Source: a virus. Taken from it: a DNA stretch of 62,482 nucleotides. The position numbers and the translations under genes are program-made. A model generated the notes under the pieces. It was not told the origin of the DNA. It did no database searches and worked only from the letters and a program-made list of their open reading frames with translations. The DNA lies in the IMG/VR virus record IMGVR_UViG_3300044819_000092, positions 1 through 62,482 of that record. One strand, given 5' to 3'. This document shows, piece after piece, positions 7,484-55,037 of this stretch (the first letter of the stretch is position 1; every line of letters starts with the position of its first letter).

Positions 7484-7514
7484 CGGACTTCAGGCTAGCC
7501 GCTCGGGAAGGGGC

Positions 7515-7526
7515 CCTCAAAATCCC
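7515..7526 (-). promoter_or_regulatory. Late-promoter-like motif, site 1 (GGGATTTTGAGG)
   Basis: Read on the minus strand, CCGGGATTTTGAGGG ends 31 bases before the ParB-like ATG at 7483. The palindrome GGCTAGCC flanks it on both sides (7493-7500 and 7527-7534). This is one of eight sites with this motif or its variant at the same distance from the first gene of a late unit. Confidence 0.6.
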
Positions 7527-7528
7527 GG

Positions 7529-7957
7529 CTAGCCGGCGACGACCGAGGCGTCCGGGACCCCAAGCTCGGCGAGCCGCTGCTGGTCCTCGATGTTCTTCAT
7601 CCACATGTTGCAGAACTCGACGAGGTCGGCCTGGCCCCGCTCGGCGCCGGTCCATCTCCAGGTGCCGCCACCCTCGACGACCTCAACGTACCGCTTGTAC
7701 GGTGCCGCGAACTGGTCGATGGCGGTCGGGAAGACGTCGCCCGAGGGGCTCACGTAGAACTCGACGTCCGGATCGGGGCACAGATCTCCATTCTGCTCGA
7801 ACCGATGCGCGACGGCGAAGAGCCCCTGGGCCAGGCAATCAATCGCCACCCGCATGAAGGTGCCCTTGGCGTTGTCGACGTACCGGGCCGCGCCCGGCTC
7901 GAGGCCCCGGACGAGGGTCTTGAAGATTTTCGTAGCTCGGCCATTCAGACTCTTCAC
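7529..7957 (-). CDS. DUF6908-like phage protein
   Basis: In this 142-residue protein the centre (FMRVAIDCLAQG, then AVAHRFEQNGDLCPDPDVEFYV) matches the DUF6908 pattern found in many phages, in which an HxxEQNGDLxxDP stretch is hallmark. Function unknown. The GTG start shares four bases (GTGA) with the stop of the upstream gene. It is the last gene of the early unit before the late promoter at 7515, and its stop codon TAG lies within the GGCTAGCC palindrome. Confidence 0.65.
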   Translation of the reverse strand: MKSLNGRATKIFKTLVRGLEPGAARYVDNAKGTFMRVAIDCLAQGLFAVAHRFEQNGDLCPDPDVEFYVSPSGDVFPTAIDQFAAPYKRYVEVVEGGGTWRWTGAERGQADLVEFCNMWMKNIEDQQRLAELGVPDASVVAG

Positions 7958-8268
7958 GCTGCACGCTCCTTGACACCAATCTCTTTTTGAACGGCCGCCG
8001 AGCGGAATGCCCGGCGCGCCTCGGCCACAGTCCTGTAGAGCTTCACTTCCTTGTAGCGGCGCCCCGGACCCTCGGCGATCTCGTTGGTCCCGAGGATGCG
8101 CCCGTCGGGCATCACGTAGATGCGCAGGCAAGCGCCCTTCTCGGTCGGGGTCTTGTAAAGGGCCCCGACGAAGTAGTCCCCCTGCCAGGGCTGGCGCAGA
8201 TCGGCCGGGAGCCGGAAGACGCCGAACCGCAGGCGGTCCCACCACGTCGAGTCGCTCGCTGTTTTCAT
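7954..8268 (-). CDS. Hypothetical protein with a MKT start module
   Basis: This 104-residue protein starts MKTASDSTWWDRLRFGVF and is rich in aromatic and basic residues; no family is recognised. The ATG sits in GTGTGAGCATGAAAAC, like the conserved start leaders further upstream, although the rest of its leader (8269-8340) has diverged. It is coupled to the DUF6908-like gene by a GTGA overlap. Confidence 0.65.
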   Translation of the reverse strand: MKTASDSTWWDRLRFGVFRLPADLRQPWQGDYFVGALYKTPTEKGACLRIYVMPDGRILGTNEIAEGPGRRYKEVKLYRTVAEARRAFRSAAVQKEIGVKERAA

Positions 8269-8344
8269 GCTCACACACTCAGCTGCAAGGCTGCTTGCCT
8301 CCAGCCAAATCCCCATGGAGCTGGTCCATGGGGACGCGGTCGGT

Positions 8345-9079
8345 CTAGGCCCGGCGGAGCTGCTTGGCGCCGGCCCCGAGGGCGGGCCCGGTCCCGAGGT
8401 GGATATCGCGGGCCGCGGTGGCGCCGGCCTGGTAGGCGTCCCGACGGGTGACCTTGACGTTCGCCTTGCTCGACGTGACGCGGCTCCACTGGCTCTTCAC
8501 GTAGGCTGCGAGGTCCGCGTCCCCGCTCTTGATGATCGCGAGCGCAGTCCCGGTGACGGTCCCCGCCTCCTGCTTCATCCGCTGCTCCTTCATCCGGCGC
8601 TGAAGCTCGGCGACGGCCCCGAACCGGAAGCTGTTCCGGAAGAGCCCGCCCATGTTCTTGCCGTCGATGTCGCACAGACGGTCGATCTCGTTCTTCAGGT
8701 ACGAGAACATGTAGGCCACGGTCTGCGTGTCGGACGGCTTGCCGATGACGCACATCCGGCTCACGAGCTTGCCGTCCACGACCACCTTGGTCGTCACGAG
8801 GCGGCAGTAGAACCCGTAGGCGATGGCGTTCATGAGCTGACTCTGCCAGGCAACGAGGCCCTTGCCCTTGCCGTCGACGTTGAGCTGTCCGACCCGCTCC
8901 GGGGCGGTGCCGGTCGAGGCCTCGAGGTCGATCATCGAGATCTTGTGCTCGAAGAGGAGCGCCTGGGCGCGGGCCGCCGCGGTGGCTGCTTCGTTGACGT
9001 TGGTGGAGGCGTGGTTCGCGAGCGCCATGAGCTTCTGAATCTTGGCGATGATGGGGTTCGTCTCGGTGGTCATTTTCAT
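8345..9079 (-). CDS. DUF2786-domain protein
   Basis: In this 244-residue protein, residues 3-45 (NPIIAKIQKLMALA... then EHKISMIDLEA) fit DUF2786, a helical domain common in phages and actinobacterial genomes. A longer C-terminal region follows (AYGFYCRLVTTKVVVDGK, YMFSYLKNEIDRL), as in the usual two-domain version. Molecular function unknown. I chose the ATG at 9079 after GAAAGG. The conserved start leader upstream (9134-9202) has lost its own ATG here (ATTACG), so the true start has moved about 55 bases downstream. Confidence 0.8.
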   Translation of the reverse strand: MKMTTETNPIIAKIQKLMALANHASTNVNEAATAAARAQALLFEHKISMIDLEASTGTAPERVGQLNVDGKGKGLVAWQSQLMNAIAYGFYCRLVTTKVVVDGKLVSRMCVIGKPSDTQTVAYMFSYLKNEIDRLCDIDGKNMGGLFRNSFRFGAVAELQRRMKEQRMKQEAGTVTGTALAIIKSGDADLAAYVKSQWSRVTSSKANVKVTRRDAYQAGATAARDIHLGTGPALGAGAKQLRRA

Positions 9080-9133
9080 GGGCCTTTCGGGAAGGAGGAG
9101 GAGGAGGGGAGGAGCCGGGAAGCTCGATTCGTA

Positions 9134-9202
9134 ATTCACACTCTTCAGTCCAAGATTTCTGCACGCCAGGCTGGATTCCGGTGAGCTGTTCTTCCCTGAC
9201 GC
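9134..9202 (-). repeat. Start-associated leader repeat, copy 1 (degenerate start)
   Basis: On the minus strand this contains the blocks CGTCAGGGAAGAACAG, GCCTGGCGTGCAG and GAAGAGTGTGAA in order, as in seven other copies. In this copy the expected ATG reads ACG. It precedes the DUF2786 gene. Confidence 0.85.
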
Positions 9203-9261
9203 CCAGGGAAAAGAGGGCCGAGGACGAGCCCCAGGGCGGCGCTCGCGTTCGGGCGCTCCTC

Positions 9262-9330
9262 GTGTTCCTGCAGGCCCGGCGGCAAGAGCCGCGCGTGGCG
9301 CTGCAGGCACGGGCTCGGGGGATGCGGGCC
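9262..9330. repeat. 3'-associated repeat element, copy 2
   Basis: GTGTTCCTGCAGG and GTGGCGCTGCAGGCA blocks on the plus strand, between the stop of the 9358-9567 gene and the leader of the DUF2786 gene. The paired CCTGCAG and CTGCAGG motifs are about 35 bases apart. Same class as copies at 10128, 13310, 15388 and 17523. Confidence 0.75.
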
Positions 9331-9357
9331 CCCGGAGGGGGAGCCCGGCCCGGGGGT

Positions 9358-9567
9358 TTAGACGTCCTCGATCCGCCCGACGAGCGCGAGCGCGCATTTT
9401 TTGCAAACGTGCCATTTTGTCGTGCGGCGGTTTTCGTCGAAGTCGACGACCGTCGTTGACGCGAGGGCCCAAGGGTGCGACCCGCCGTCGGATGCGTCGC
9501 AAATTTTGGCCCCGGCGGGGATGGCGGAGAAGGTCGGGAAGGTGGAGGAGGTCGACTCGGTTTTCAT
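9358..9567 (-). CDS. Small MKTES-module protein
   Basis: This 69-residue protein begins MKTESTSSTFPTFSAIP, sharing its start and Ser/Thr-rich lead-in with the products at 13017, 15094 and 17150, but its body differs. The body has a paired-cysteine motif (HVCKKC) near the end, so a metal-binding role is possible. The ATG belongs to the conserved leader at 9561-9637. Function unknown. Confidence 0.65.
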   Translation of the reverse strand: MKTESTSSTFPTFSAIPAGAKICDASDGGSHPWALASTTVVDFDENRRTTKWHVCKKCALALVGRIEDV

Positions 9568-9637
9568 ACTTCACACTCTTCAGCCCACGGAAACTGCACG
9601 CCACCCTCGATTCGGGTGAGCTGTTCTTCCCTGACGC
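9561..9637 (-). repeat. Start-associated leader repeat, copy 2
   Basis: All three blocks are present (CGTCAGGGAAGAACAG, GGTGGCGTGCAG, GAAGAGTGTGAAGT) and lead directly into ATGAAAACCGAG of the 9358-9567 gene. Confidence 0.85.
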
Positions 9638-9650
9638 CCAGACCCGCCCG

Positions 9651-9667
9651 AGCCCCCGAAGGGGGAG
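9651..9667 (-). terminator. GC stem-loop after the 9689-10000 gene
   Basis: CCCCC-GAA-GGGGG at 9653-9665, followed by more complementary GC sequence, lies just downstream of the stop at 9689. There is no T-run, so it may be an RNA-stabilising hairpin instead of a classical terminator. Similar GC hairpins follow the genes at 15094 and 17150. Confidence 0.35.
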
Positions 9668-9688
9668 CCCGAGCCGGGGCCCGGGGCC

Positions 9689-10000
9689 TCAGCCCTGGTG
9701 CCCGTGCCCGCCGTCGCAGATCCCTTCCCAGATCTGGCCCAGCTCGCGGCGCACGGTCTTCAGCATCTTGACCCGCCCGTGGTGCTGCTCGAGGGCCGCC
9801 TGGAAGTCCATCACGTGCCGAGGGTAGTAGTCGCGCGCGTGCGGGGCGGCGGCGTTGAGCGCGTCGAGCGCCAGGCTCAGGGCCCGGTCGGCCGCTTCAA
9901 TCTGGGACTCGAGCTCCTGCTTGCTCGTCCCGTTCATGTGGATCGTCGGGAGCTGGAGGGCGGGGGCGGCTTCGGGCTTTCGGTCGAGGTCGGTTTTCAT
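9689..10000 (-). CDS. Small helical hypothetical protein
   Basis: This 103-residue protein, starting MKTDLDRKPEA, is predicted mostly helical (ELESQIEAADRALSLALDAL and DFQAALEQHHGRVKMLKTVRREL), so a coiled-coil oligomer is likely. It ends in a short Gly/His tail. It is led by leader copy 3 and followed by a GC hairpin. No family recognised. Confidence 0.65.
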   Translation of the reverse strand: MKTDLDRKPEAAPALQLPTIHMNGTSKQELESQIEAADRALSLALDALNAAAPHARDYYPRHVMDFQAALEQHHGRVKMLKTVRRELGQIWEGICDGGHGHQG

Positions 10001-10071
10001 ACTTCTCACTCTTCAGGCCACCGGATCTGCACGCCAGGCTGGATCCCGGTGGCCCTGTTCTTCCCTGACGC
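9994..10071 (-). repeat. Start-associated leader repeat, copy 3
   Basis: CGTCAGGGAAGAACAG, GCCTGGCGTGCAG and GAAGAGTGAGAAGT in order, running into ATGAAAACCGACC of the 9689-10000 gene. Confidence 0.85.
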
Positions 10072-10076
10072 GGGGA

Positions 10077-10589
10077 TCACGCGACCTTGGAGAAGAACCG
10101 CCGATCCCACCTCACCTTCGACTTGCTCGTGTTCGGCGCAGGGAGGACAGCAAGGGCCGCGCGTGGCGCTGCAGCCACGGGCTCGGGGGATGCCGGGGCC
10201 GGGGCGGGGACCGGGGCCGGGGCGGGGGCCGGAGCGGGCCGCGCGGGCTTGGCCTTCGGGACAGGCTTGGCCGCGGGAGCTGCCTTCTTCGCCTTGGCCT
10301 TCACCGGGGCCGGGGCCGGAGCGGGGACCGGGGCCGGGGCCGTTCGCCCCATGTGGCGCTTGGCGACGACGCCGAGGTCGAAGAGCGCCGCCAGATCGGC
10401 ATATGCCACATAGCTGCCGCTCCCGTTCAAATCCACCGCCTTGAACGTCGCCCCGTCGAAGAGGTGCGTACCCCACTTGAGGACGACGTGCCTCGCCGCT
10501 CCTTCGTTGGCGGTCCGTTTGACGTGGCCCTCGTAGGAGCCGAGGTAGCACTCGATGCGGCTGATGGTCGTCTTCTCCAGGGTGGTCAC
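10077..10589 (-). CDS. Hypothetical protein with Pro/Ala/Lys-rich tail
   Basis: In this 170-residue protein, residues 1-85 form a compact domain (IECYLGSYEGHVKRTANEG, then VLKWGTHLFDGATFKAVDL). Residues about 86-150 are low-complexity PAPAPAP with lysines, typical of a flexible basic tail. The last ~30 residues are encoded by a copy of the 3'-associated repeat element (10128-10190). GTG start with a GTGA overlap to the upstream gene. Function unknown; the tail could bind nucleic acid. Confidence 0.65.
   Translation of the reverse strand: MTTLEKTTISRIECYLGSYEGHVKRTANEGAARHVVLKWGTHLFDGATFKAVDLNGSGSYVAYADLAALFDLGVVAKRHMGRTAPAPVPAPAPAPVKAKAKKAAPAAKPVPKAKPARPAPAPAPAPVPAPAPASPEPVAAAPRAALAVLPAPNTSKSKVRWDRRFFSKVA
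10128..10190. repeat. 3'-associated repeat element, copy 3 (inside a coding sequence)
   Basis: CAAGGGCCGCGCGTGGCGC followed by TGCAGCCACGGGCTCGGGG matches the elements at 9262 and 15388, but here it is read in frame as the C-terminus (PEPVAAAPRAAL...) of the 10077-10589 product. The stop codon lies about 50 bases beyond it. Confidence 0.65.
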
Positions 10590-10858
10590 TTGAGCTCCTT
10601 GATGGTCCCCGCGTCGACGATGGTGTCGATGCGGTTGGACTTCGAATAGAACACCTGCTCGCCGGGCTCCGTGCGTTCCGTGAACAGCACGAGCTCGCCC
10701 GAATGGCAGGCCACGCCGAGCTTGGTCTTCACCTCCCGCGCGGCCCGGCCGACCCGCCACGAATCCCAGTGCCCGCGGTACTGAGGCCACTTGGCGCTGT
10801 GCCCGTCGGCAATCTCGACGAGCAGCCGGCGGATCTTCTCCTTGACCAAGCCACTCAC
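10586..10858 (-). CDS. Small hypothetical protein
   Basis: This 90-residue protein starts VSGLVKEKIRRLLVEIADG and has a Trp-rich middle (WPQYRGHWDSWRVGRAAREV). No family recognised. The GTG start and stop codons are each joined to neighbours by GTGA overlaps, so it is translated in a chain with the genes at 10077 and 10855. Confidence 0.65.
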   Translation of the reverse strand: MSGLVKEKIRRLLVEIADGHSAKWPQYRGHWDSWRVGRAAREVKTKLGVACHSGELVLFTERTEPGEQVFYSKSNRIDTIVDAGTIKELK

Positions 10859-11457
10859 GACTTGATCTTCCCTTCGTGCGTCCCCTCGAACACTTCGACG
10901 ATCTGCGAGGTGTCCCGGCCATCGTCTCGGTGGACCTGCTTGACGAGGTCGACCGCGTGCGCCGGGCTCGCCGCCTCGATGTGCTCGACGAACGGCTGTG
11001 GCAACTCGAGCCCGACCGCAACGTTCCACGAGTTGAGGTAGCCGACCACCGTGTACGGCCGGTAGTCCATGCCGCTCACGGTTGGCTCGACGTCCGACTC
11101 TCGCCCCTGAATCTCGGCCTGCCGCTCCGCGCGCATGATCTTGTCGATGGCCGATTCCACGTCTTCCCGCGGGCGCAGGTACTCCACCCGCCGCGCGACG
11201 TCTTCGATCGTCTCGGAGCTCCACTCGTGGTCCGGGTCCCCGCCCGGCCACAGGATCTCCTTCAGGTCATCCTCGAGCGTCGAGATCATGGCCGAGGTGA
11301 CCTTGGCCTTGCCGAGCCCCTCGTCGCGGTCCTCGATGAGGTCCTGAAGATCGCCCCAGTCGAGGATCTGCGCGACGTAGAGCTCCGGGTGCTGGTCCTT
11401 CTCGGTGGTCTCGATCTCGAGCTCTATCAAAACGCGGGTCTTCATGACGCGGGTCAC
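10855..11457 (-). CDS. Hypothetical acidic protein
   Basis: This is a 200-residue protein from a GTG overlapping the previous stop; an ATG at 11445 is an alternative. It is acidic, with ELEIETTEKDQHPELYVAQIL near the start and a helical middle (EDVESAIDKIMRAERQAEIQ). The C-terminal part (YRPYTVVGYLNSW, then VEHIEAASPAHAVDLVKQ) reads like a small alpha/beta domain. No confident family. Confidence 0.65.
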   Translation of the reverse strand: MTRVMKTRVLIELEIETTEKDQHPELYVAQILDWGDLQDLIEDRDEGLGKAKVTSAMISTLEDDLKEILWPGGDPDHEWSSETIEDVARRVEYLRPREDVESAIDKIMRAERQAEIQGRESDVEPTVSGMDYRPYTVVGYLNSWNVAVGLELPQPFVEHIEAASPAHAVDLVKQVHRDDGRDTSQIVEVFEGTHEGKIKS

Positions 11458-11888
11458 AGGGCACCGCCCTTCTGCCCGACGTCGCGCGGGTCCGGCTGGT
11501 CGATGAGGACCGGCTCGCGCGCGTCCATGCGGATGCTGGTGAGCGTGCCGTTGGGGCGGCAGTAGTAGATGGTCGCGATCTCCTTGTAGAGCGACACTCC
11601 GGTGACGGTCACGCGCAACCAGCGCCCGCCGGCGTCGGTGAGCCAGCCGTTGCCGGCGCCGGTGAGGACGTCGCCCTTCTGCAGGCGCCCCGCCGGGACC
11701 GCTCCCCCGTGCGCGATGTTGAGGAGCGCGGAGGCCCAGCTCGACTCGCCGCCGAGCAGCTCCCAGACCTCCTTGACGTAGGCGTCCTCGCCGGGGGTCA
11801 CGTCGAAGGCCCCGGCTGGGCCCTTGCTCTCCCAGATCTCGAGCGCTCGAATGTTCCCGACCGGCGTCGGCTCAACATTCGTCTTCAC
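11454..11888 (-). CDS. Hypothetical protein
   Basis: This 144-residue protein from a GTG at 11888 shares four bases with the stop of the zinc-ribbon gene. The middle has SSWASALLNIAHGG and a beta-rich second half (GWLTDAGGRWLRVTVTGVSLY). Function unknown. A longer frame to 12068 exists but runs through the zinc-ribbon gene in another frame, so it is rejected. Confidence 0.6.
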   Translation of the reverse strand: MKTNVEPTPVGNIRALEIWESKGPAGAFDVTPGEDAYVKEVWELLGGESSWASALLNIAHGGAVPAGRLQKGDVLTGAGNGWLTDAGGRWLRVTVTGVSLYKEIATIYYCRPNGTLTSIRMDAREPVLIDQPDPRDVGQKGGAL

Positions 11889-12061
11889 GACGTCGGCTCC
11901 GCCGCGGCCGGCGCCTGCAGCTCCGCGCACGGGAGGCACACCACGCTGAAGGAGCAGCCACGCCAGACGATCTGGCAGCTCTGGTCCAGGTCGACTGCCT
12001 TGCCGCAGGTCCGGCACTTCTGACAATGCTTCGGGTCGTTCGTCTCCATGGTCATCTCCAT
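11885..12061 (-). CDS. Small zinc-ribbon protein
   Basis: This 58-residue protein was read directly from the sequence. Two cysteine pairs, HCQKCRTCG at residues 12-20 and VVCLPC at about 40-45, plus a central Cys29 and Cys36, give a typical zinc-ribbon arrangement. The ATG at 12061 follows a T-rich stretch; later in-frame ATGs at 12055 and 12049 are possible. It is coupled by GTGA to the next gene. A nucleic-acid or protein adaptor role is likely but unproved. Confidence 0.65.
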   Translation of the reverse strand: MEMTMETNDPKHCQKCRTCGKAVDLDQSCQIVWRGCSFSVVCLPCAELQAPAAAEPTS

Positions 12062-12096
12062 TTTTCAAGTTGGTTCGGTGGTCGAGCCCGGGCGGG

Positions 12097-12264
12097 TCAG
12101 GCCGCGGGCTTGTTCATCATCGAGCGCAGCTCCGCGGCGAGCTCCTGGGCGGTCCAACCCGGGATGCGCGAGAGGCGAGCCGCGAGGGCTCGGAACTTGG
12201 GGTCCGGGTGGGCCGCGAGCTGGCGAAGGATTTCTGCTTCCGGGCGGGTCGACTTGGTTTTCAT
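12097..12264 (-). CDS. Small helical hypothetical protein
   Basis: This is a 55-residue protein beginning MKTKSTRPEAEILRQLAAH and ending SMMNKPAA. It is predicted helical throughout (FRALAARLSRIPGWTAQELAAELR), a HEAT-like or helix-turn-helix-like pattern. Its ATG sits in GTGTGAAGTATGAAAACC, the conserved leader end, although the upstream leader (12265-12330) has diverged. Too short for confident family assignment. Confidence 0.55.
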   Translation of the reverse strand: MKTKSTRPEAEILRQLAAHPDPKFRALAARLSRIPGWTAQELAAELRSMMNKPAA

Positions 12265-12425
12265 ACTTCACACACTTCTCTGCAACCGCCGGCCCAGCAA
12301 CCATTTGCCGGGACCGGCTGTTCTGTGGGGACGCGCCCGGTCTAGAACTCGCCCTTGACCCTTTGCCCCAGCTCCCCTGTCGGGTGGAGACGCGCCGGGC
12401 CTACGTGCTCCCGGCGCCGGTCCCG

Positions 12426-12632
12426 CTAGTGCTGGTGAGTGTGGCCCTTGCCGGTCCCGTGATGGTGATGGTGGGCCCCGGGGACGTGTTTCTCGACCGT
12501 CAGCTCCCCGCCAAGCTCGAGGGCGAGCGCCTCCAGCTCGGCCATGATCTCGGCCTCTTCTCCGATCATGTCTCGGGCGTTGGTCTTGATGGAGCCGTCC
12601 GCGAGGATTTCAACAATCAGCTTCGATGCCAT
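12426..12632 (-). CDS. DUF2997-like small protein with histidine-rich tail
   Basis: In this 68-residue protein the N-terminal strand (KLIVEILADGSIKTNA) and following acidic helix (EIMAELEALALELGG) fit DUF2997, a short family usually adjacent to DUF1257 and a Ycf46-like AAA+ ATPase. Both occur here (12637 and 15487). The C-terminus is HVPGAHHHHHGTGKGHTHQH, a natural metal-chelating run. The gene lies 4 bases downstream of the DUF1257 gene, so co-translation is likely. Biochemical role unknown. Confidence 0.6.
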   Translation of the reverse strand: MASKLIVEILADGSIKTNARDMIGEEAEIMAELEALALELGGELTVEKHVPGAHHHHHGTGKGHTHQH

Positions 12633-12636
12633 GGGA

Positions 12637-12978
12637 TCACCCGTTCCTTCGGTTCGTGAGAATCAGCTTGCCCTTGTTCAACCCGTCGACCGAGACCGTG
12701 AACCCGCGCTTCTTGGCGAAGGCCCGGACGCCGATCTCGGTGTACTTCCGCTGCACGGCCTTCAAGGCCTCGAGGTTCGACGATTCGGTCGAGAACCCCT
12801 CGCCCTTCTGCCGGCGGTAGAAGTTGAGGTCGAGCCGGTCGTTCGTCTCGTGGGATCCGCGGGCGGCTGCGAGCGTGTCGCCCCGATTGTAAACTTCGTA
12901 CCCGAGCGCCTTCAGGGCTTCCTCCAGGCGCTCGAGCTCGGTCATGGTCGTTTTGGTCACGGTCGAAAAACAGGGCAT
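12637..12978 (-). CDS. DUF1257 (Ycf35-like) protein
   Basis: This 113-residue protein starts MPCFSTVTKTTMTELERLEE and continues with LKALGYEV, matching the DUF1257/Ycf35 signature (M-S-H-F-S-T, then a D/E-L-E-x-L-xx-A-L-xx-L-G run). The C-terminal half (YRRQKGEGFSTESSNLEALK, then GFTVSVDG) fits the family's second part. The ATG at 12978 has a strong GGAG seven bases upstream, which decides the start against a longer frame. In cyanobacteria and plastids Ycf35 and Ycf46 co-occur; their joint function is not established. Confidence 0.75.
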   Translation of the reverse strand: MPCFSTVTKTTMTELERLEEALKALGYEVYNRGDTLAAARGSHETNDRLDLNFYRRQKGEGFSTESSNLEALKAVQRKYTEIGVRAFAKKRGFTVSVDGLNKGKLILTNRRNG

Positions 12979-13016
12979 TTCGGTCTCCTTTTTCGGGGTC
13001 GGGGACGGGGCCGGAG

Positions 13017-13190
13017 TTACCGCGCGGAGCGGACTTCGACGTCGCCGTCGAGCTTGGCGAAGAACTTCTCGAGAGCAGCTTGGGTCTTGAAGGTCCGGAG
13101 CTTCCAAGCCGTGCCGGGGATCCGGTAGGCGATCTCGATGGCCGGGGTGGAGGGGGAAGAGGAGGAGGAGAAGAGCGACTCGGTTTTCAT
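13017..13190 (-). CDS. Small MKTES-module protein, paralogue of the 15094 product
   Basis: This is a 57-residue protein. After MKTESLFSSSSSPSTP comes a compact domain EIAYRIPGTAWKLRTFKT then ALEKFFAKLDGDVEVRSAR. The 15094-15276 product has the same domain (EIAYRHRGTEWKRRTFKT) and ends EVQFAR. The two share leader, Ser-rich lead-in and domain, so they arose by duplication of the whole cassette. Function unknown. Confidence 0.7.
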   Translation of the reverse strand: MKTESLFSSSSSPSTPAIEIAYRIPGTAWKLRTFKTQAALEKFFAKLDGDVEVRSAR

Positions 13191-13260
13191 ACTTCTCACT
13201 CTTCTGCCCTTGATTTCTGCACGCCAGGCTGGATTCCGTCGTTCTGTTCTTCCCTGACGC
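13184..13260 (-). repeat. Start-associated leader repeat, copy 4
   Basis: CGTCAGGGAAGAACAG, GCCTGGCGTGCAG and GAAGAGTGAGAAGT are all present and lead into ATGAAAACCGAGTC of the 13017-13190 gene. Confidence 0.85.
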
Positions 13261-13309
13261 CGAGTGCCGCCGCGCTACTTGGCCCGGGCGGAGCCGGCGC
13301 CGGTGTGGC

Positions 13310-13388
13310 GTGTTCCTGCAGGCCCGCCCGCATGGCGCGCCCGTGGCGCTGCAGGCATCCCCTCCGAAGGTGTCCGGCCCCGGGCCCG
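13310..13388. repeat. 3'-associated repeat element, copy 4
   Basis: GTGTTCCTGCAGGCCC, then GTGGCGCTGCAGGCA, then GAAGGTGTCCGGCCCCGGG on the plus strand. It lies downstream of the DUF3846 stop at 13409. Nearly identical to the copy at 17523-17600, including the GAAGGTGTCCG extension. The minus-strand frame through both copies is open and similar (GRTPSEGMPAAPR), so one may derive from a coding 3' end. Confidence 0.75.
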
Positions 13389-13408
13389 GGTGAGCGGGCC
13401 CCCGGGGC

Positions 13409-13771
13409 CTAGTCGTCGACCGAGGGCGGGAGCCCGAGGAACCCCACGAACCTATCGATCACCCACGGGATGAGCGCGCTCGGGACCGAGGTCGAGTCGC
13501 CTCCTCGGCTCGTCTGCCCTGTGATGAAGAACGTCCCGTGGATCCACTGCCGCAGCTCGAGCACGGGACGGTTCGGCGGGAGGCCCTTCAGCAAGCCCTC
13601 CTCGTCGCACCAGAGGTTGAGGAGCCGCCCGCCGCAGTGGAGCGGGACGCACTGGACGAGCCCGCCCCCCACGGTCTGCTGGAACGTCTCGAGATCATTC
13701 TCGATGAGCTCGAGCTTGGGGACCGGATCGTCCGCCTTCACCACCACCACCTCGATCTTGGCCACGGTCAC
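13409..13771 (-). CDS. DUF3846-domain protein
   Basis: This 120-residue protein has the DUF3846 pattern: FQQTVGGGLVQCVPL, then CDEEGLLKGLPPNRPVL, then IHGTFFITGQ. This family is common in phages and conjugative elements and is of unknown function. The GTG start overlaps the DUF3150 stop by four bases (GTGA), so the two are made together. Confidence 0.8.
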   Translation of the reverse strand: MTVAKIEVVVVKADDPVPKLELIENDLETFQQTVGGGLVQCVPLHCGGRLLNLWCDEEGLLKGLPPNRPVLELRQWIHGTFFITGQTSRGGDSTSVPSALIPWVIDRFVGFLGLPPSVDD

Positions 13772-14703
13772 GCCGCCAAGCGCCGGCGGCCCGGCTGAGT
13801 GAGGTTACGCTCCGCCGTGGCGATGGCTTCGTCCATCCCCACCTCGAGCGACTTCTTGATTTCCGAGAGGCCCGAGATGGCCGAGTCGGGCACCCGCTTG
13901 TTTGTCTCGATGCCGCGGAGCAGGGCGCGGAGCTGCTTCACCTGGGCGCTGAGGTTCGCGTCCCCGAGGACGTTGACCTGCTCGACCCGGTCGAGGACCT
14001 CGAACGCGGTCCGCAGGGACGCATCTCGCAAGATGCCGCCCTTCTGAATGAGCGCGAGGACGTCCGCGAGCTTGGTGGTCACGTCTTCTCGGAGCTGGGT
14101 CACCATGAAGGAGATCACGCCCTTCACGGTCTCGCCCTCGGACAGGAGGGCCGCTTCCGTCCCCGCCTGCTTCGGGCCCTGGATCGCGTAGACGCTCCAG
14201 TGCAGTCCGAACTTCGACCGCACGCTCTCGGCGCTCGGGTACTCGGCCCGGACCCGCGCGAGCGCATTGGCCGCCGCCTCCTCGGTCTTGGCCGCATCCT
14301 TGAGCGCCTGCTCGATGACCGGGAACATGGCCTCCTTCGTCTGCTCGTAGTTCGAGACGAAGTCGTCGACCGCCAGCTCGAACTCGGCCCGCAATTCCTT
14401 CAGCCGCGACGACAGCGCCTCGAGGTTGGCCGAGGGCACGTAGCGGGTCCCGAAGATGAACCCGAAGGTCAAGCCGTAGTGGTCGACGGCCTTCTTCGCC
14501 TTGCTCACGATCTCGTGGATCTTGGTGAACGAGTCCGGAGGAGCGAGCCGGGTGGAGCCGAGCGACAGCGCCTGCTCGACCGACTCGGACTCGTCGATCC
14601 CGAAGTCCTTCGCGCGGAGCTTGAGCCGAGCGCCCCAGACCGACGTTGAGAGGCCCACCACGGATCCGGACAGAAACAGGTCATTCCACGACAGCTTTGA
14701 CAT
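13768..14703 (-). CDS. DUF3150-family protein
   Basis: This 311-residue protein has a start (SGSVVGLSTSVWGARLKLRAKD), middle (FGFIFGTRYVPSANLEALSSRL, EFELAVDDFVSNYEQTKEAM) and helical remainder that match DUF3150. Such proteins are found in phages and plasmids, often near AAA+ ATPases, as here with the ATPase at 15487. Long amphipathic helices suggest a structural or adaptor role. ATG 14703 has AAGGAG upstream, which fixes the start. CTCAAGTTTCGA lies about 24 bases before it. Confidence 0.75.
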   Translation of the reverse strand: MSKLSWNDLFLSGSVVGLSTSVWGARLKLRAKDFGIDESESVEQALSLGSTRLAPPDSFTKIHEIVSKAKKAVDHYGLTFGFIFGTRYVPSANLEALSSRLKELRAEFELAVDDFVSNYEQTKEAMFPVIEQALKDAAKTEEAAANALARVRAEYPSAESVRSKFGLHWSVYAIQGPKQAGTEAALLSEGETVKGVISFMVTQLREDVTTKLADVLALIQKGGILRDASLRTAFEVLDRVEQVNVLGDANLSAQVKQLRALLRGIETNKRVPDSAISGLSEIKKSLEVGMDEAIATAERNLTQPGRRRLAA

Positions 14704-14789
14704 TGGTATTCTCCTTCTGCATTTTTCGAAACTTGAGACTGTGGGCCTCCTCCGCCGAGTCAATCAGCGCGGAGGAGGACGGGGCCGGG

Positions 14790-14984
14790 TTAGAGCGATC
14801 CGAGGGCCTGACGCAGCTGCGAGCAGCGCGCCTTCTGGGAAGGCCAAATGGCCTGGACCTCGTCGAGGGTCTCGAGGCAGATCGTCTTCTGGTCCGGCGT
14901 CGCGAACCCTCGCTCGATGACTTGCTCGACGGGCGCGAGGTGGGATTCCGAGGGGCTGTAGGTCGTCTTGATTGCTGAGTTCAT
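14790..14984 (-). CDS. Small hypothetical protein
   Basis: This is a 64-residue protein starting MNSAIKTTYSPSESHLAPV with a helical C-terminal half (TLDEVQAIWPSQKARCSQLR). Its start is inside leader copy 5, where the codons read ATGAACTCAGC instead of ATGAAAACC. No family recognised. Confidence 0.6.
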   Translation of the reverse strand: MNSAIKTTYSPSESHLAPVEQVIERGFATPDQKTICLETLDEVQAIWPSQKARCSQLRQALGSL

Positions 14985-15053
14985 GCTCACACTCTTCTCT
15001 CCTGGATTTCTGCACGCCAGGCTCGCGTGGCTTGAGCTGTTCTTCCCTGACGC
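14981..15053 (-). repeat. Start-associated leader repeat, copy 5
   Basis: CGTCAGGGAAGAACAG, GCCTGGCGTGCAG and GAAGAGTGTGAGC precede the ATG of the 14790-14984 gene. The block between the first two has changed (CTCAAGCCACGCGA), but the spacing is kept. Confidence 0.8.
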
Positions 15054-15093
15054 GGGCCGGGTGGGGCCCCCGGGAGGGGAGCCCGGCCCGGGG

Positions 15094-15276
15094 TTACCGT
15101 GCGAACTGAACCTCCGCGCCCTCGAGCTTCTCGAGGAATTTGTCGAGCGCCTTCTCGGTCTTGAAGGTCCGGCGCTTCCATTCGGTCCCGCGGTGGCGGT
15201 AGGCGATCTCGATGGGCTCGGGGGAGCGGTTCGAGGTGGAGGAGGAGGGGGAGGAGGTCAGCGACTCGTTGTTCAT
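15094..15276 (-). CDS. Small paralogue of the 13017 product
   Basis: This is a 60-residue protein. MNNESLTSSPSSSTSNRSPEP is a serine-rich lead-in, followed by IEIAYRHRGTEWKRRTFKT, then ALDKFLEKLEGAEVQFAR. About half of the domain residues are identical to the 13017-13190 product. A basic strand-helix domain of this size could bind nucleic acid, but no family is known to me. Led by leader copy 6 and followed by a GC hairpin near 15060. Confidence 0.7.
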   Translation of the reverse strand: MNNESLTSSPSSSTSNRSPEPIEIAYRHRGTEWKRRTFKTEKALDKFLEKLEGAEVQFAR

Positions 15277-15346
15277 GCTCACACTCTTCAGTCCAAGATT
15301 TCTGCACGCCAGCCTGGATTCCGTCGTTCTGTTCTTCCCTGACGCC
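15274..15346 (-). repeat. Start-associated leader repeat, copy 6
   Basis: CGTCAGGGAAGAACAG, GGCTGGCGTGCAG and GAAGAGTGTGAGC lead into the ATG of the 15094-15276 gene. The middle is nearly identical to copy 1 (AAATCTTGGACT). Confidence 0.85.
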
Positions 15347-15387
15347 CAGGGGTAAGAGGCCGAGGTCGAGCCCGGCGGCGCTCCCCC

Positions 15388-15470
15388 GTGTTCCTGCAGG
15401 CCCGCCCGCAAGGGCCGCGCGTGGCGCTGCTCGCCGGCGCCCGGAAGGCGCGGGCCCCCGGGAGGGGAGC
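15388..15470. repeat. 3'-associated repeat element, copy 5
   Basis: GTGTTCCTGCAGGCCC and CAAGGGCCGCGCGTGGCGC on the plus strand, between the stop of the AAA+ ATPase gene (15487) and leader copy 6. A GC-rich dyad (GGGCCCCCGGGAGGGGAG) closes it. Confidence 0.75.
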
Positions 15471-15486
15471 CCGAGCCCGGGCCGCT

Positions 15487-16974
15487 TCACCCGAGCTTGC
15501 GGCTGGTGCTCGCGGGGGCCTCGGGAGCGGAGGCGGCGCGGGCCCGGGTCTTGGCCCATTCCCTGATGGCAGAGATCTCCTCCTTCATGGTGGTCGCGAG
15601 CGGGATGGTCGACTGGGCCGAGGTGAGCAGGTGCCGGGTTTCGAGCGGGATGGAGGCGTCGAACGACTCGAACATGGCGTCTGTGACGACCGACTCGATC
15701 TCGCTCCCCGTGAACCCCTCGGTGACCTTGGCCAGCGCCTGCACGTCGAACGAGCCCGGAGCCCGTCCCCGATTGCGCAGGTGGATCCCGAAGATGATCT
15801 TCCGCTCCTCGAAGGTCGGCAGGTCGACCGCGAAGATCTCGTCAAACCGGCCCTTGCGGAGCAGCTCGGGCGGGAGCGCGGAAACCTGGTTCGCGGTGGC
15901 GACGATGAAGACCGGCCGGGCCTTCTCCTGCATCCAGCTGATGATCGTCCCGAACATGCGCCGGGTGACGCCGCTGTCCCCGCTGCCGCTGCCGCTGCTG
16001 CCCGCGAGCCCCTTGTCGATTTCGTCGATCCAAAGGACGCAGGGGGAGATGGCCTCCGCGAGCTTGAGCGCATCGCGGGTCCGCCGCTCGCTCTCGCCCA
16101 CGAGGCTGTTGAACAAGCTCCCCACGTCGAGCTTGAGGGTCGGGACGCCGAGCGCAGTCCCGATGGCCTTCGCCGAGAGCGACTTGCCGGTCCCCGGGAC
16201 GCCCACGAGCAGCACGCCCTTCGGCTGGGGCAAGCCATACTCCACGGCCTCGGGCGACCAAGCCCGACGACGGCGGAGGATCCACGCCTTCAGCACCTCG
16301 AGCCCGCCGATCCCCTCGACGCCGCGGGGATCTGGCTCGACGATTTCGAGGAGCCCCGTCCGCTTCACGGCCTTGATCTTCTCGCGGTAGATGACCGCCG
16401 GGTCGAACCCCTTCATCTCCACGAACGACAGCGACAAGGCATTCTCGGCCTCGCTGGCGGTGAGCCCGCCGAGGGCCCGGAGGAGCTCGGGGCTCGCGGC
16501 CGGAGGAAGCCCGGCGCTCTCGGCGATCCCGGCGACGATGGCGGCAAGCTCCTCCGCGCTCGGCATCTCGTAGTCAAGCACCACCACGAGCTTCTCGAGC
16601 GTCGGGTGGGGCTGGAAGCTGTTCGCCAGGATGACGACGGACGAGCCGCCCGCCGGCGCCGCAGCCAAGAAGTCGCGGAAGGTCCGGAGCAGGATCGGAT
16701 CCCGGTCAAAGGGCCAGGTGTGCGGATCGCGCAGGATGAAGACGGTGTTCTCGCGGCGCTGGCTGCACGCCGCCATCAAGTCCTGCGTGTCGTCGATGGC
16801 CCGTCCGCCGGCGGAGACGTCCCGCATCCCCTCGGTCGCGCTCCACGTCACGATGCTTCGGCCCACCTCCTTGGCGGCGGCGATGACGTCGGCGCAGGCG
16901 CGGCCCTCGTCGCTGGTCTGAATGGCAATGGCCGGAAAAGCAGCCTTGAAATAGTTGCGCAGCACGGTCTTCAT
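15487..16974 (-). CDS. Ycf46-like AAA+ ATPase
   Basis: This is a 495-residue protein. The N-terminal ~215 residues form a degenerate domain with VFILRDPHTW and VVILANSF, as in Ycf46. The C-terminal AAA+ module has Walker A at 258-265 (GVPGTGKS), the Ycf46-type run KLDVGSLFNSLVGESERR, Walker B at about 313-318 (VLWIDE), sensor 1 at 359-362 (ATAN) and an arginine-finger region (RKGRFDEIF). It is probably a hexameric remodeller. Partners suggested by co-occurrence elsewhere are DUF1257 and DUF2997, both encoded at 12.4-13.0 kb. ATG 16974 has AAGGAG upstream. Confidence 0.85.
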   Translation of the reverse strand: MKTVLRNYFKAAFPAIAIQTSDEGRACADVIAAAKEVGRSIVTWSATEGMRDVSAGGRAIDDTQDLMAACSQRRENTVFILRDPHTWPFDRDPILLRTFRDFLAAAPAGGSSVVILANSFQPHPTLEKLVVVLDYEMPSAEELAAIVAGIAESAGLPPAASPELLRALGGLTASEAENALSLSFVEMKGFDPAVIYREKIKAVKRTGLLEIVEPDPRGVEGIGGLEVLKAWILRRRRAWSPEAVEYGLPQPKGVLLVGVPGTGKSLSAKAIGTALGVPTLKLDVGSLFNSLVGESERRTRDALKLAEAISPCVLWIDEIDKGLAGSSGSGSGDSGVTRRMFGTIISWMQEKARPVFIVATANQVSALPPELLRKGRFDEIFAVDLPTFEERKIIFGIHLRNRGRAPGSFDVQALAKVTEGFTGSEIESVVTDAMFESFDASIPLETRHLLTSAQSTIPLATTMKEEISAIREWAKTRARAASAPEAPASTSRKLG

Positions 16975-17040
16975 CGGGCGACTCCTTGGGGACCGCGCCG
17001 GGGCGCGGGGTGGGTTTCGTGTTCGGTGGAGGTGTTGAAT

Positions 17041-17105
17041 TCACTCTTCAGGCCAGCGGATCTGCACGCCAGGCTGGGTTCGGGTGAGCTGTTCTTCCCT
17101 GACGC
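17041..17105 (-). repeat. Start-associated leader repeat, copy 7 (start region lost)
   Basis: CGTCAGGGAAGAACAG, GCCTGGCGTGCAG and CCTGAAGAGTGAA are intact, but the sequence then changes to TTCAACACC without an ATG. The ATPase instead starts about 65 bases further on with its own ribosome-binding site. Retention of the rest suggests the leader acts at more than translation. Confidence 0.8.
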
Positions 17106-17149
17106 GGGGGCCGGGGGGGCCCCCGGAGGGGAGCCCGAGCCCGAGCCGG

Positions 17150-17401
17150 CTACGAGCAGACGTAGACGTAAGAGACGCCGAGGGCGGAGAAGTGAGCGCG
17201 GGCGGCCTTCTTGGCCTCGCCGTAGGTCCCGTTGGCCCAAAAGACATCGGTCGTCGAGTCGTAGTTCCGCTTGGCGGAGAAGCCCCAGCTCCCGCCGCCG
17301 CGCGGCTCCTTGCCGGTCGCGAAGCGGTATCCCGAGGTGTTGAACTCGATGGAGGTGGAGGGGGAGCGGGAGGAGGGGGAGGAGAGCGACTCGGTTTTCA
17401 T
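17150..17401 (-). CDS. Small MKTES-module protein
   Basis: This is an 83-residue protein. MKTESLSSPSSRSPSTSIEF is followed by a Gly/aromatic-rich domain (YRFATGKEPRGGGSWGFSAK, then EAKKAARAHFSALGVSYVYVC). The lead-in matches the 13017 product (MKTESLFSSSSSPSTP) but the domain is different, so the lead-in is shared by unrelated bodies. Followed by a GC hairpin at about 17111-17126. Function unknown. Confidence 0.65.
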   Translation of the reverse strand: MKTESLSSPSSRSPSTSIEFNTSGYRFATGKEPRGGGSWGFSAKRNYDSTTDVFWANGTYGEAKKAARAHFSALGVSYVYVCS

Positions 17402-17470
17402 ACTTCTCACTCTTCTGCCCTCCGGATCTGCACGCCAGGCTGGGTTCGGGTGAGCTGTTCTTTCCTGACG
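17399..17470 (-). repeat. Start-associated leader repeat, copy 8
   Basis: CGTCAGGAAAGAACAG (one change), GCCTGGCGTGCAG and GAAGAGTGAGAAGT lead into ATGAAAACCGAGTCG of the 17150-17401 gene. Confidence 0.85.
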
Positions 17471-17487
17471 CGGGGGGCGCGCCCGGG

Positions 17488-18282
17488 CTACTTGACGGGC
17501 GGAGCGCCGGCGCCGGTGTGGCGTGTTCCTGCAGGCCCGCCCGCATGGCGGCCCCGTGGCGCTGCAGGCATTCCCTCCGAAGGTGTCCGCCCCCGGGAGG
17601 GGCACGTCGGGGGAGCCGTCGCGGGGATTCTCTGGAGGAGATCCATGCCGGCTCGCATGTTGGCGAGCGCCTGCTTCTCGAGCTGGCGGGCCCGCTCCAT
17701 GGTGAGGTTCGCGTAAGCCCCCACCTGCTGCAGCGGCATGGCCTGCCCTTCCCGGACGAGGGCCGCGACCCGGAGCGAGCAGGTCTCCGGCATCTCGTCG
17801 ACGTCGATGCCAGGGAAGTTGTCCTTGACCGAGTGACTGACCGGATCGATCTCGAGCTTCAGGTGGTGCCGGCACGAGACCCACGGGCACGGCCCCGGCT
17901 TGCAGTCCCCGAACGTCTTCGGCCGTCGGCGGTAGATCCCCGCCCGGGTGAGTGCCGCGACGTCGAGCTTCATCTCGGCCCGCTCGGCCCGGCCGACCCG
18001 GTGGGTCCCGAGCGACTTCGGCCGAGGTCCGTGGATCGGCATCGGCGCGAACTGCCGGAGCCCGGCCGCGCGCCGGATCGGGGCCCGTGCCGCCGCCGCC
18101 CGCGGCGCGAGCTCGAGCGGCATCTGCACCTCCGCCTGCCGTCTGCCAGGGCGCTGGCCATGCACCCGCCGGCCGGGGAAGTGGACGACCACCACGATCC
18201 CGAGGAACCCGAAGCACACCTGGCGCGGCGCCTCGAGCGGGATCTCCGGGGGCCGGACGATGCGCAGCGCGTGCGCGCTCAC
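17488..18282 (-). CDS. Sigma-70 region 4-like DNA-binding protein
   Basis: This 264-residue protein from a GTG at 18282 overlaps the RuvC-like stop by four bases. Residues about 115-210 contain a cysteine/histidine segment (GPCPWVSCRHHL), then METCSLRVAALV and a helix-turn-helix (MPLQQVGAYANLTMERARQL, then EKQALANMR) that closely follows sigma region 4.2, which contacts the -35 element. Regions 2 and 3 are absent. The N-terminal ~100 residues are Pro/Arg-rich and unfamiliar. The C-terminal ~35 residues come from the 3'-associated repeat. It may activate the phage late promoters; this is inference. Confidence 0.7.
   Translation of the reverse strand: MSAHALRIVRPPEIPLEAPRQVCFGFLGIVVVVHFPGRRVHGQRPGRRQAEVQMPLELAPRAAAARAPIRRAAGLRQFAPMPIHGPRPKSLGTHRVGRAERAEMKLDVAALTRAGIYRRRPKTFGDCKPGPCPWVSCRHHLKLEIDPVSHSVKDNFPGIDVDEMPETCSLRVAALVREGQAMPLQQVGAYANLTMERARQLEKQALANMRAGMDLLQRIPATAPPTCPSRGRTPSEGMPAAPRGRHAGGPAGTRHTGAGAPPVK
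17523..17600. repeat. 3'-associated repeat element, copy 6 (overlaps a gene 3' end)
   Basis: GTGTTCCTGCAGGCCC, GTGGCGCTGCAGGCA and GAAGGTGTCCG on the plus strand. It is read in frame as the C-terminus (TPSEGMPAAPRGRHAGG...) of the sigma-like protein. The copy at 13310 carries the same frame but lies after a stop codon. Confidence 0.7.
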
Positions 18283-18791
18283 GTCGCTCCCGTTTGCGCG
18301 TGGCGCCCCGCCGCCGGTCCGGATGGTGTCCGGGGGCCGAGCCCGCTCCGCTGCGCCCAGGCCGCGATGGCGCAAGCATCGGCCTGGTCCTCGGGCAGCG
18401 CGATCCCGAACCGCTCGAGCGCCCACGCGATGCACGCGAGCTTCCGCTCCGGGCCCGGCGTCCGGGTGGTCATGCGGCCGGCCAGGATCACCGGCTGCCA
18501 GGTGGACGCGAGGACCGTCACCGTCGCGAGCCCGCGCCGCTCGAACGCCTGCAGCCACCGGCCGAGCAGCCGAGAGAGGACGAGGCCGGTTGAGTTGTTC
18601 AGCCTGACGAAGACGTCCTCGATCGCGACCACCTCGGGCTTGAACGTCGCGATGGTGTCGGCCGCGCGCTCCACCGCCTGCCAGTCATTCACCTCGCAGA
18701 GCCCGCGCCGGAGGATGCGCGCGCCGCAGATGACCGCGATGCCGGTCCGCTCGGCGCTGTCGACCCCGACGATGACGGCCGTGTCGTTCAC
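18279..18791 (-). CDS. RuvC-like Holliday-junction resolvase fold protein
   Basis: In this 170-residue protein the first strand has the acidic signature IVGVDSAERTGIAV (first catalytic Asp). EVVAIEDVFVRLN supplies the second carboxylate, and PEDQADACAIAAWA the C-terminal acidic pair, as in RuvC-type RNase H-fold nucleases. It probably processes branched recombination or replication intermediates. I chose GTG 18791 with AGGA upstream; the longer frame enters the pentamer-repeat array. A second RuvC-like gene is at 31477. Confidence 0.7.
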   Translation of the reverse strand: MNDTAVIVGVDSAERTGIAVICGARILRRGLCEVNDWQAVERAADTIATFKPEVVAIEDVFVRLNNSTGLVLSRLLGRWLQAFERRGLATVTVLASTWQPVILAGRMTTRTPGPERKLACIAWALERFGIALPEDQADACAIAAWAQRSGLGPRTPSGPAAGRHAQTGAT

Positions 18792-18794: not shown

Positions 18795-19535
18795 GAAAAT
18801 TCCTCGCCTCGCCTCGCCAGGCCCCGCCGTACCCCGCCTCGCCTTGCAACACCCGGCCACACCAAGCCCAGCCTCGCATCGCCACGCGGCGCCACTCCAG
18901 ACCCCGAACCTCGAAAACCGTTTGAGAAGAAGACCCTGCCTTGCCAGGCCACGCCTCGCCTCGCCTCGCCCCGACCAGCCTCGCCGTGCCTCGAACCTCG
19001 AAAAGCCGTTGAGAAGAAACCTCGCCGCTCCAAGCCCGGCCTAGCCGGGCCACGCAACGCCCGGCCGTGCCCTGCCTCGCCATGCCCTGCCGGGAGCCTC
19101 GAGAACCGTTGAGAGAGAACCCTCGCCCCGCCCCGCCGAGCCGTGCCGAGCCATGCCTTGCCACGCCGCGCCAGGCCCCGCCGTTCCTTGCACCGCCATG
19201 CCCCGAGCCTCGAAAAGTCGTTGAGAAGAAAACCCGTGCCTCGCACCGCCAAGCCTCGCACCGCCGCGCCACACCTTGCCTCGCAAGGCCAAGCCATGCC
19301 GCGCCGGGCCTCGCACCGCCGCGTTCCTCGAGAACCGTTGAGAAGAAAAGCCTCGCCTGGCCTGGCCCTGCCGCGCACCGCCCCGCCCTGCCAAGCCGGG
19401 CCGGGCCAAGAGCCTCGAAAAGCCGTTGAAGAAAAGCCGCGCCTCGCGCTGCCTTGCCTTGCAGTGCCATGCAGTGCCCGGCCGTGCCCTGCCTCGCCTT
19501 GCCGGGCCGCGCCCCGCCCTCGCCATGTGCCCGCC
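18795..19535. repeat. Pentamer (CCNNG) array with six interspersed ~26-base boxes
   Basis: About 740 bases with no credible gene. On the plus strand nearly the whole stretch can be cut into five-base units CCNNG (CCTCG, CCTTG, CCATG, CCGTG, CCGGG). Six boxes of the form CCTCGAAAACCGTTGAGAAG start at about 18909, 18996, 19097, 19208, 19326 and 19413, spaced 87-118 bases; the box also keeps the five-base register. Long minus-strand open frames exist only because stops cannot easily form in this pattern. It lies between the RuvC-like gene and an early gene and is a candidate replication origin or protein-loading site. Confidence 0.8.
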
Positions 19536-20178: not shown

Positions 20179-20254
20179 CTCGTTTCTCCGTTCTTTTTCA
20201 GGTTGTCTCGCGGCCCGCGCCAATGCCGCTCTCGTCTTCGATGGCGCGATGGGA

Positions 20255-20390: not shown

Positions 20391-20391
20391 T

Positions 20392-51593: not shown

Positions 51594-55037
<3,444 letters not shown>

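What the first reader, a model, noticed from the sequence alone, without database searches (positions are those of the whole stretch)
9134..17470. Standard-part intergenic cassettes: a ~70-base start-associated leader in at least eight copies
On the minus strand CGTCAGGGAAGAACAG, GCCTGGCGTGCAG and GAAGAGTG recur in the same order and spacing at 9134, 9561, 9994, 13184, 14981, 15274, 17041 and 17399, each leading into a small gene, usually ATGAAAACC. Two more starts (8268 and 12264) keep only the last part. Two copies (before DUF2786 and the AAA+ ATPase) have lost their ATG yet keep the rest, so the leader is not just a ribosome-binding site. The closest known parallel is the start-associated sequences of cluster K mycobacteriophages, but sequence and layout differ here.
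Basis: seen in the sequence. Interest (0 to 1): 0.85.

Follow-up and report, generated by a model that had tools for sequence, protein, structure and literature searches.

The report
Repeated phage gene-start leader cassettes
This uncultured phage carries eight near-standardised ~70-base leader segments (plus two older variants) in front of small accessory genes, a home-grown set of expression parts similar in concept to the start-associated sequences of some mycobacteriophages but with its own sequence and layout.

Summary
Eight leaders lie on the minus strand between 9.1 and 17.5 kb and nowhere else in the 62-kb phage record. Each has three blocks, GCGTCAGGgAAGAACAG, TGGCGTGCAG and GAAGAGTG, at fixed spacing over 64 nt. 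The blocks are 95-100% identical between copies, the spacers only 54-66%. Two further starts (12264, 8268) are divergent full-length versions, not just tails. Two copies have lost the adjacent ATG yet keep all three blocks.

Six of the eight follow a very stable hairpin just after the upstream stop codon. Copies are mosaics of one another, so they recombine. Compared with the closest relative (AAA+ 68% identical), leader-plus-small-ORF units sit inside an operon that is tight there. No relative examined carries the leader.

Best reading: a lineage-specific, portable expression cassette (terminator-like hairpin + promoter/5'-UTR + translation start). It resembles mycobacteriophage SAS/ESAS and T4 PeSL cassettes but is a member of neither. 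The promoter step is inferred; no known promoter consensus matches. A translational leader remains a serious rival: a remote phage with a related AAA+ gene has its own start-associated leader, there a covarying pseudoknotted RNA.

The parts
17402..17471 (-). Type I leader, start of 83-aa gene 17401 (one mismatch in block A)
17042..17105 (-). Type I leader blocks A-B-C upstream of the AAA+ gene; no ATG at the expected place; the gene starts 67 nt further on behind its own AAGGAG
15277..15345 (-). Type I leader, start of 60-aa gene 15276
14985..15053 (-). Type I leader, start of 64-aa gene 14984
13191..13260 (-). Type I leader, start of 57-aa gene 13190; mosaic of the 17401 and 15276 copies
10001..10071 (-). 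Type I leader, start of 103-aa gene 10000; only copy with a 1-nt insertion and with complementary spacers
9568..9637 (-). Type I leader, start of 69-aa gene 9567
9139..9202 (-). Type I leader blocks A-B-C upstream of the DUF2786 gene; adjacent ATG decayed to ACG with an ORF remnant
12265..12334 (-). Type II (divergent, full-length) leader, start of 55-aa gene 12264; hairpin in the middle
8269..8337 (-). Type II leader, start of 104-aa gene 8268; hairpins in the middle
17117..17140 (-). Terminator-like GC hairpin GGGCTCCCCTCCGGGGGCCC after the stop of 17401
15452..15475 (-). Same hairpin family after the AAA+ stop
15064..15087 (-). Same hairpin family after the stop of 15276
9650..9671 (-). Same hairpin family after the stop of 10000
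9326..9349 (-). Same hairpin family after the stop of 9567
13376..13409 (-). GC hairpin (GGCCCCGGG/CCCGGGGCC) at the stop of gene 13771, upstream of the 13190 cassette
17522..17571 (-). D7/D9 intergenic repeat (CCTGCAG...CTGCAGG), here forming the 3' end of the HTH gene
15387..15434 (-). D7 intergenic repeat upstream of the 15276 leader
13309..13358 (-). D7/D9 repeat upstream of the 13190 leader (90% identical to the 17.5-kb copy over 115 nt)
9261..9310 (-). D7 repeat upstream of the DUF2786 leader
17150..17401 (-). 83-aa leader-borne gene; homologue in L023 (36% over 61 aa) lacks the MKTES/Ser-rich N terminus and has its own Shine-Dalgarno
15487..16974 (-). AAA+ ATPase (core gene)
15094..15276 (-). 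60-aa inserted gene, paralogue of 13190
14790..14984 (-). 64-aa inserted gene
13768..14703 (-). DUF3150 gene (core, own Shine-Dalgarno)
13017..13190 (-). 57-aa inserted gene, paralogue of 15276
12637..12978 (-). Core gene (DUF1257-like by my reading; no Pfam hit), own Shine-Dalgarno
12426..12632 (-). Core gene (DUF2997-like by my reading; no significant Pfam hit)
9689..10000 (-). 103-aa leader-borne gene
9358..9567 (-). 69-aa leader-borne gene
8345..9079 (-). DUF2786/DUF7168 gene downstream of the ATG-less leader
17488..17973 (-). Sigma-70 region-4-like HTH protein just upstream of the array (possible trans factor, unproven)

Best explanation
The repeat is a lineage-specific, portable expression cassette. 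A terminator-like hairpin closes the gene before it. The 64-nt three-block segment then works at the head of the next transcript as a phage-specific promoter/operator plus 5' untranslated leader. Its 3' end, GAAGAGTG(T)GAAGT-ATGAAAACC, doubles as a translation start with a weak Shine-Dalgarno site. Duplication and gene conversion between copies spread it, and it lets small accessory genes be inserted between core genes while keeping their own expression signal. Shown: the blocks, fixed spacing, hairpins, mosaicism, insertion as compared with a relative, and block retention without an ATG. Inferred: that the blocks are read as DNA by RNA polymerase or a phage factor, and that the hairpins terminate transcription.
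For: Blocks are 95-100% identical and spacers 54-66%, at constant spacing apart from one 1-nt insertion; invariant columns cluster in runs beyond all 20,000 permutations. All copies are co-oriented, intergenic and confined to the small-gene region. The two ATG-less copies keep every block and sit 59 and 67 nt upstream of the starts of the DUF2786 and AAA+ genes. Six of eight junctions before type I leaders carry a hairpin in the lowest 2% of the genome's 50-nt fold energies (four at or below 0.5%); two junctions without a leader have none. Leaders have 54-63% GC against 68.6% for the genome. In L023 the same core genes abut without leader or small ORFs. Mosaic copies: 15276 shares spacer 1 with 13190 but spacer 2 with the DUF2786 copy. 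Cluster K ESAS, the nearest analogue, contain SigA-like promoters (PMC11373665).
Against: No sigma-70-like promoter in the region (0 found, 0.4 expected). Neither sigma-54 nor ECF spacing fits the blocks on inspection. The fixed 69-71 nt from GCGTC to ATG is more than a promoter needs. The hairpins lack U tracts, and two type I leaders (17401, 10000) have no such hairpin between the upstream stop codon and the leader. Gene conversion alone could keep the blocks identical.
Confidence: 0.5

Rival explanations
1. RNA-level translational leader: the 70-nt segment is a 5' UTR bound by a phage or host protein or small RNA (or folded through GCGUCAGG/CCUGGCGU) that switches or boosts initiation at the adjacent AUG, with transcription coming from elsewhere.
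For: Fixed distance to AUG; no canonical Shine-Dalgarno at leader-borne starts; an 8-bp GU-containing stem between blocks A and B, reached by 0.27% of shuffles; type II copies carry strong hairpins (z -1.7 and -3.0). Remote phage G006 (L100) and two further contigs have start-associated leaders with a covarying pseudoknot and hairpin before the start.
Against: The A-B stem shows no covariation: 6 of its 8 pairs never vary and the other 2 are broken in some copies. Leader folds are no better than shuffles (z +1.0 to -1.2). Spacers 1 and 2 are strongly complementary only in the 10000 copy and, less so, the 9567 copy. Two copies keep all blocks with no adjacent start codon.
Confidence: 0.3
2. Recombination or selfish intergenic repeat (MITE-like or PeSL-like shuffling site) whose conservation reflects gene conversion, with no dedicated regulatory role.
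For: Clear mosaicism between copies, accompanying D7/D9 repeats, insertion next to small ORFs, absence from relatives.
Against: Conversion would not confine variation to spacers while holding their length; strict co-orientation and position at gene starts; two divergent type II leaders keep the same length and ends.
Confidence: 0.12
3. Binding-site array for a phage repressor or anti-repressor (stoperator-like), for example for the sigma-region-4-like HTH protein encoded next to the array.
For: HTH gene 17488-17973 lies directly upstream of the first leader (Sigma70_r4 E=2.4e-5); GCGT(G)CAG and GAAGA each occur twice in a leader (sequence).
Against: A 41% homologue of the HTH protein occurs in G001, which has no leader; strict start association is unlike stoperators.
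Confidence: 0.05
4. Assembly duplication or coding artefact.
For: The contig ends show duplicated sequence, so assembly is not perfect there; one frame of the leader reads VREEQLT.IQPGVQ..
Against: Copies have distinct spacers, flanks and following genes far from the contig ends; within the leader, variation is not at third codon positions and one copy is frameshifted.
Confidence: 0.03

Closest known systems
Start-associated sequences (SAS/ESAS) of cluster K mycobacteriophages (PMC3203893; PMC11373665)
   Same: Multiple co-oriented copies in the non-structural region just before ATG starts of mostly small genes; conservation beyond any Shine-Dalgarno; an extended upstream part on a subset; lineage-restricted; function unproven.
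   Different: No 13-bp GGGATAGGAGCCC or AGGAG; three asymmetric blocks over 64 nt with fixed spacing instead of a 13-bp SAS plus 17-bp inverted repeats with variable spacer; no SigA-like promoter found; some copies stand without a start codon.
PeSL (promoter early stem-loop) cassettes of T4-type phages (Arbiol 2010, Comeau 2014; cited in PMC4503421, originals not held)
   Same: Terminator-like hairpin plus leader between small accessory genes; copies linked to gene-module shuffling.
   Different: No recognisable host-type early promoter here; the leader reaches into the start codon; unrelated phage and sequence.
Structured start-associated leader of IMGVR_UViG_3300036829_000060 (L100/G006), found here, no Rfam match
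   Same: Six copies directly before starts in the region of a homologous AAA+ gene; conserved blocks around a variable middle.
   Different: Unrelated sequence; covarying pseudoknot and hairpin, canonical GGAG Shine-Dalgarno.

Membership tests
Cluster K SAS | 13-bp GGGATAGGAGCCC (at most 2 mismatches) 3-7 bp before starts | tested here: not met
   3 weak matches, 3.1 expected by chance; the two in this region are on the opposite strand, inside hairpins
Cluster K SAS | Many co-oriented copies next to starts of non-structural genes | tested here: met
Cluster K ESAS | 17-bp imperfect inverted repeats with short variable spacer | tested here: not met
   Only an 8-nt GCGTCAGG/CCTGGCGT complement with two G-T pairs; fixed spacing
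Cluster K ESAS | SigA-like -35/-10 inside the element | tested here: not met
   0 sigma-70-like sites in 7500-18500; host promoter rules unknown
T4-type PeSL | Stem-loop (terminator) at the module border | tested here: met
   Six of eight junctions before type I leaders in the lowest 2% of fold energies; no U tract
T4-type PeSL | Early host-type promoter in the cassette | tested here: not met
T4-type PeSL | Recombination between cassettes shuffles modules | tested here: inconclusive
   Mosaic copies and inserted small genes; no close relatives to show shuffling
Known structured RNA families (Rfam 15) | Covariance-model match at gathering score | tested here: not met
   0 matches

The most novel reading that the evidence does not exclude
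The three-block leader is the recognition module of a phage-specific transcription-initiation system: a promoter class matching no known sigma class, possibly read with the adjacent sigma-region-4-like protein. The phage would use it as a standard part to plug new small genes into an existing operon.
Probability: 0.12. Interest if true: 0.8.

Novelty: new variant of a known kind. Interest (0 to 1): 0.52.

Why it matters
It is a further, independently evolved case of phages equipping accessory genes with a standard leader. The case is clean: invariant blocks at fixed spacing, decayed-ORF copies that isolate the selected part, and a relative without the insertions. It gives defined elements (A, B, C, spacers) for testing how accessory genes acquire expression, a long-open question for SAS/ESAS. 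The parallel in G006 suggests that start-associated leaders recur by convergence.

Tried and rejected
Conserved RNA structure: no covariation, folds no better than shuffles. Spacer-spacer stem: strong only in the 10000 copy, weaker in 9567. Upstream ORF or peptide: variation not synonymous, one copy frameshifted. Sigma-70 promoter: none. Sigma-54 and ECF spacing checked by eye: no fit. Known RNA families: none. Homologous leaders elsewhere: IMG/VR hits to the 16-mer or to B-C are isolated matches without the other blocks, in apparently unrelated sequence; the A+B pattern has 0 hits in IMG/VR and GTDB contigs; phages and plasmids by blastn gave nothing significant; model R1 against 80 viral loci, 30 bacterial loci and 6 relative records found none. 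HTH protein as dedicated partner: weakened, because its homologue is in leader-less G001. TALE hits of the HTH protein in the PDB are repeat-inflated noise. The structure string was mis-registered and is not used.
Full report
OBSERVATION. The window is a whole IMG/VR virus record of 62,482 bp of a contractile-tailed phage: sheath, baseplate, tape measure, Mu-type portal, terminase and major head protein. Eight copies of a leader occur on the minus strand between 9139 and 17471 and nowhere else. From GCGTC to the ATG, where there is one, each measures 69-71 nt. Block A (GCGTCAGGGAAGAACAG), block B (GCCTGGCGTGCAG, last ten bases invariant) and block C (GAAGAGTG) have mean pairwise identities of 98.5, 94.8 and 100%. 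Spacer 1 has 66% and spacer 2 has 54%. Of 64 columns 40 are invariant, and 34 of these lie in runs of at least 7, which no permutation reached. Only the 10000 copy has an indel within the 64 nt. Variation confined to the spacers at constant length means the copies are old enough to have diverged and that blocks and spacing are constrained, or are held by gene conversion.

TWO TYPES. The leaders at 12265-12334 and 8269-8337 are homologous to each other. At the same distance from the start they keep the GCGTC...GA(A/C)CAG beginning, and they keep the GTGTGA end. The middle is replaced by strong hairpins. They are divergent full-length members, not remnants of the last part only.

COPIES WITHOUT A START. 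Before the AAA+ gene and before the DUF2786 gene the blocks are intact but the ATG is gone. In the DUF2786 copy ATG has become ACG, followed by a decayed version of the Ser-codon run found in the other copies; 14 of 26 start-region positions changed against 0 of 35 block positions. The downstream genes start 59 nt (DUF2786) and 67 nt (AAA+) beyond block C; the AAA+ gene has a strong Shine-Dalgarno site, the DUF2786 gene only a weak one. So selection, or conversion, acts on the blocks independently of an adjacent start codon. This is the best argument for a function before translation.

CONTEXT. Six of the eight junctions before type I leaders carry a GC hairpin directly after the upstream stop codon, in the lowest 2% of genome-wide 50-nt fold energies. 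Five of these share the sequence GGGCTCCCC(N)GGGGGCCC; the one before 13190 differs. Two stop-to-start junctions without a leader have no hairpin; a third (14984 to 14703) has a moderate one. A second intergenic repeat (D7/D9, CCTGCAG...CTGCAGG) precedes four leaders and has become the 3' end of the HTH gene. Leader-borne starts have Shine-Dalgarno pairing of -2.9 to -7.4 kcal/mol (random mean -4.1), whereas nearby starts without leaders reach -6.4 to -8.8. Leaders have lower GC (54-63%) than the genome (68.6%).

INSERTION AND SPREAD. In the closest relative (L023; AAA+ 68%, DUF3150 52%) the AAA+, DUF3150 and two following genes lie back to back with their own starts. In the window, leader-plus-gene units sit between them: 15276 and 14984 after AAA+, and 13190 (with leaderless 13771) after DUF3150. 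The 83-aa gene 17401 has a homologue in L023 that lacks the MKTES/Ser-rich N terminus. The copies are mosaics: 15276 has the flank and spacer 2 of the DUF2786 copy but spacer 1 of 13190, and 13190 has the flank and tail of 17401. Segments have therefore been exchanged between copies. Insertion in the window rather than loss in the relatives is the simpler reading, because L024 and L025 also lack these units.

DISTRIBUTION. No second occurrence was found. The A+B pattern has 0 hits in IMG/VR and GTDB contigs. Isolated 16-mer or B-C matches elsewhere lack the other blocks. The model finds nothing in 80 viral and 30 bacterial loci with homologous AAA+ genes, nor in six relative records. The records G001 and G004 also show no start-associated repeat of their own by the same 12-mer test.

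A PARALLEL. The same 12-mer test shows that G006 (L100) has a different start-associated leader in six copies next to its AAA+ gene. With two further contigs (L192, L193), twelve copies support two crossing helices paired in all sequences with compensatory changes, plus a covarying hairpin: 93% of cells paired against 85% in shuffles, 9 pairs with changes on both sides. Some hairpin columns are misaligned, which lowers the count. This is a likely undescribed structured RNA and shows that start-associated leaders arise repeatedly, in that case at RNA level. It raises the standing of the RNA-level rival for the window, but the window leader lacks any such covariation.

MECHANISM. The combination hairpin - leader - start, block retention without a start, low GC and co-orientation fit a transcription-unit head: terminator, phage-specific promoter/5' UTR, and translation start. 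This step is inferred; no sigma-70 site was found. The neighbouring sigma-region-4-like protein is a candidate reader, weakened by its homologue in leader-less G001.

COMPARISON. It works like cluster K SAS/ESAS (PMC3203893; ESAS contain SigA-like promoters, PMC11373665) and like T4 PeSL cassettes, but fails the sequence-defining tests of both. Verdict: real, new variant of a known kind.

Noticed in passing
L100:9290-13281; also L192 and L193: A different start-associated leader, CTGAGTAGTAC-hairpin-TGGACAACTCAGTCCA-GATTGGAGACAA-ATG, 12 copies aligned from three phage contigs, with a covarying pseudoknot and hairpin and UCCA able to pair with the Shine-Dalgarno; no Rfam match. Probably an undescribed structured RNA.
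   Followed up: partly
L100:8989-9061: Type II hammerhead ribozyme (RF02276, 39.2 bits, gathering 37) immediately before the Shine-Dalgarno of the first gene of the same block.
   Followed up: no
window 18805-19530 and 20241-20400: Long tracts of degenerate GCCNN pentamers; the first is interrupted by about six copies of CTCGAAAAGCCGTTGAGAAGAAAACC. They lie near the RuvC-like and replication-initiation genes; perhaps an origin or a regulatory array.
   Followed up: no
window 17488-17973 (-): Small protein with a sigma-70 region 4-like helix-turn-helix directly upstream of the leader array; 41% homologue in G001 without leaders.
   Followed up: partly
window 10077-10589 (-) and 17488-17600 (-): The D7/D9 intergenic repeat runs into the 3' ends of two genes, apparently supplying new C-terminal codons.
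   Followed up: partly
window 1-130, 61736-61990, 62228-62482: Bases 1-127 recur at 61864-61990 and the last 255 bases repeat 61736-61990 at 99%: circular or terminally redundant genome with an assembly over-run.
   Followed up: no
window 53560-54135: Dense 9-nt periodic repeats inside a large ORF, likely a repetitive tail-fibre-type protein.
   Followed up: no
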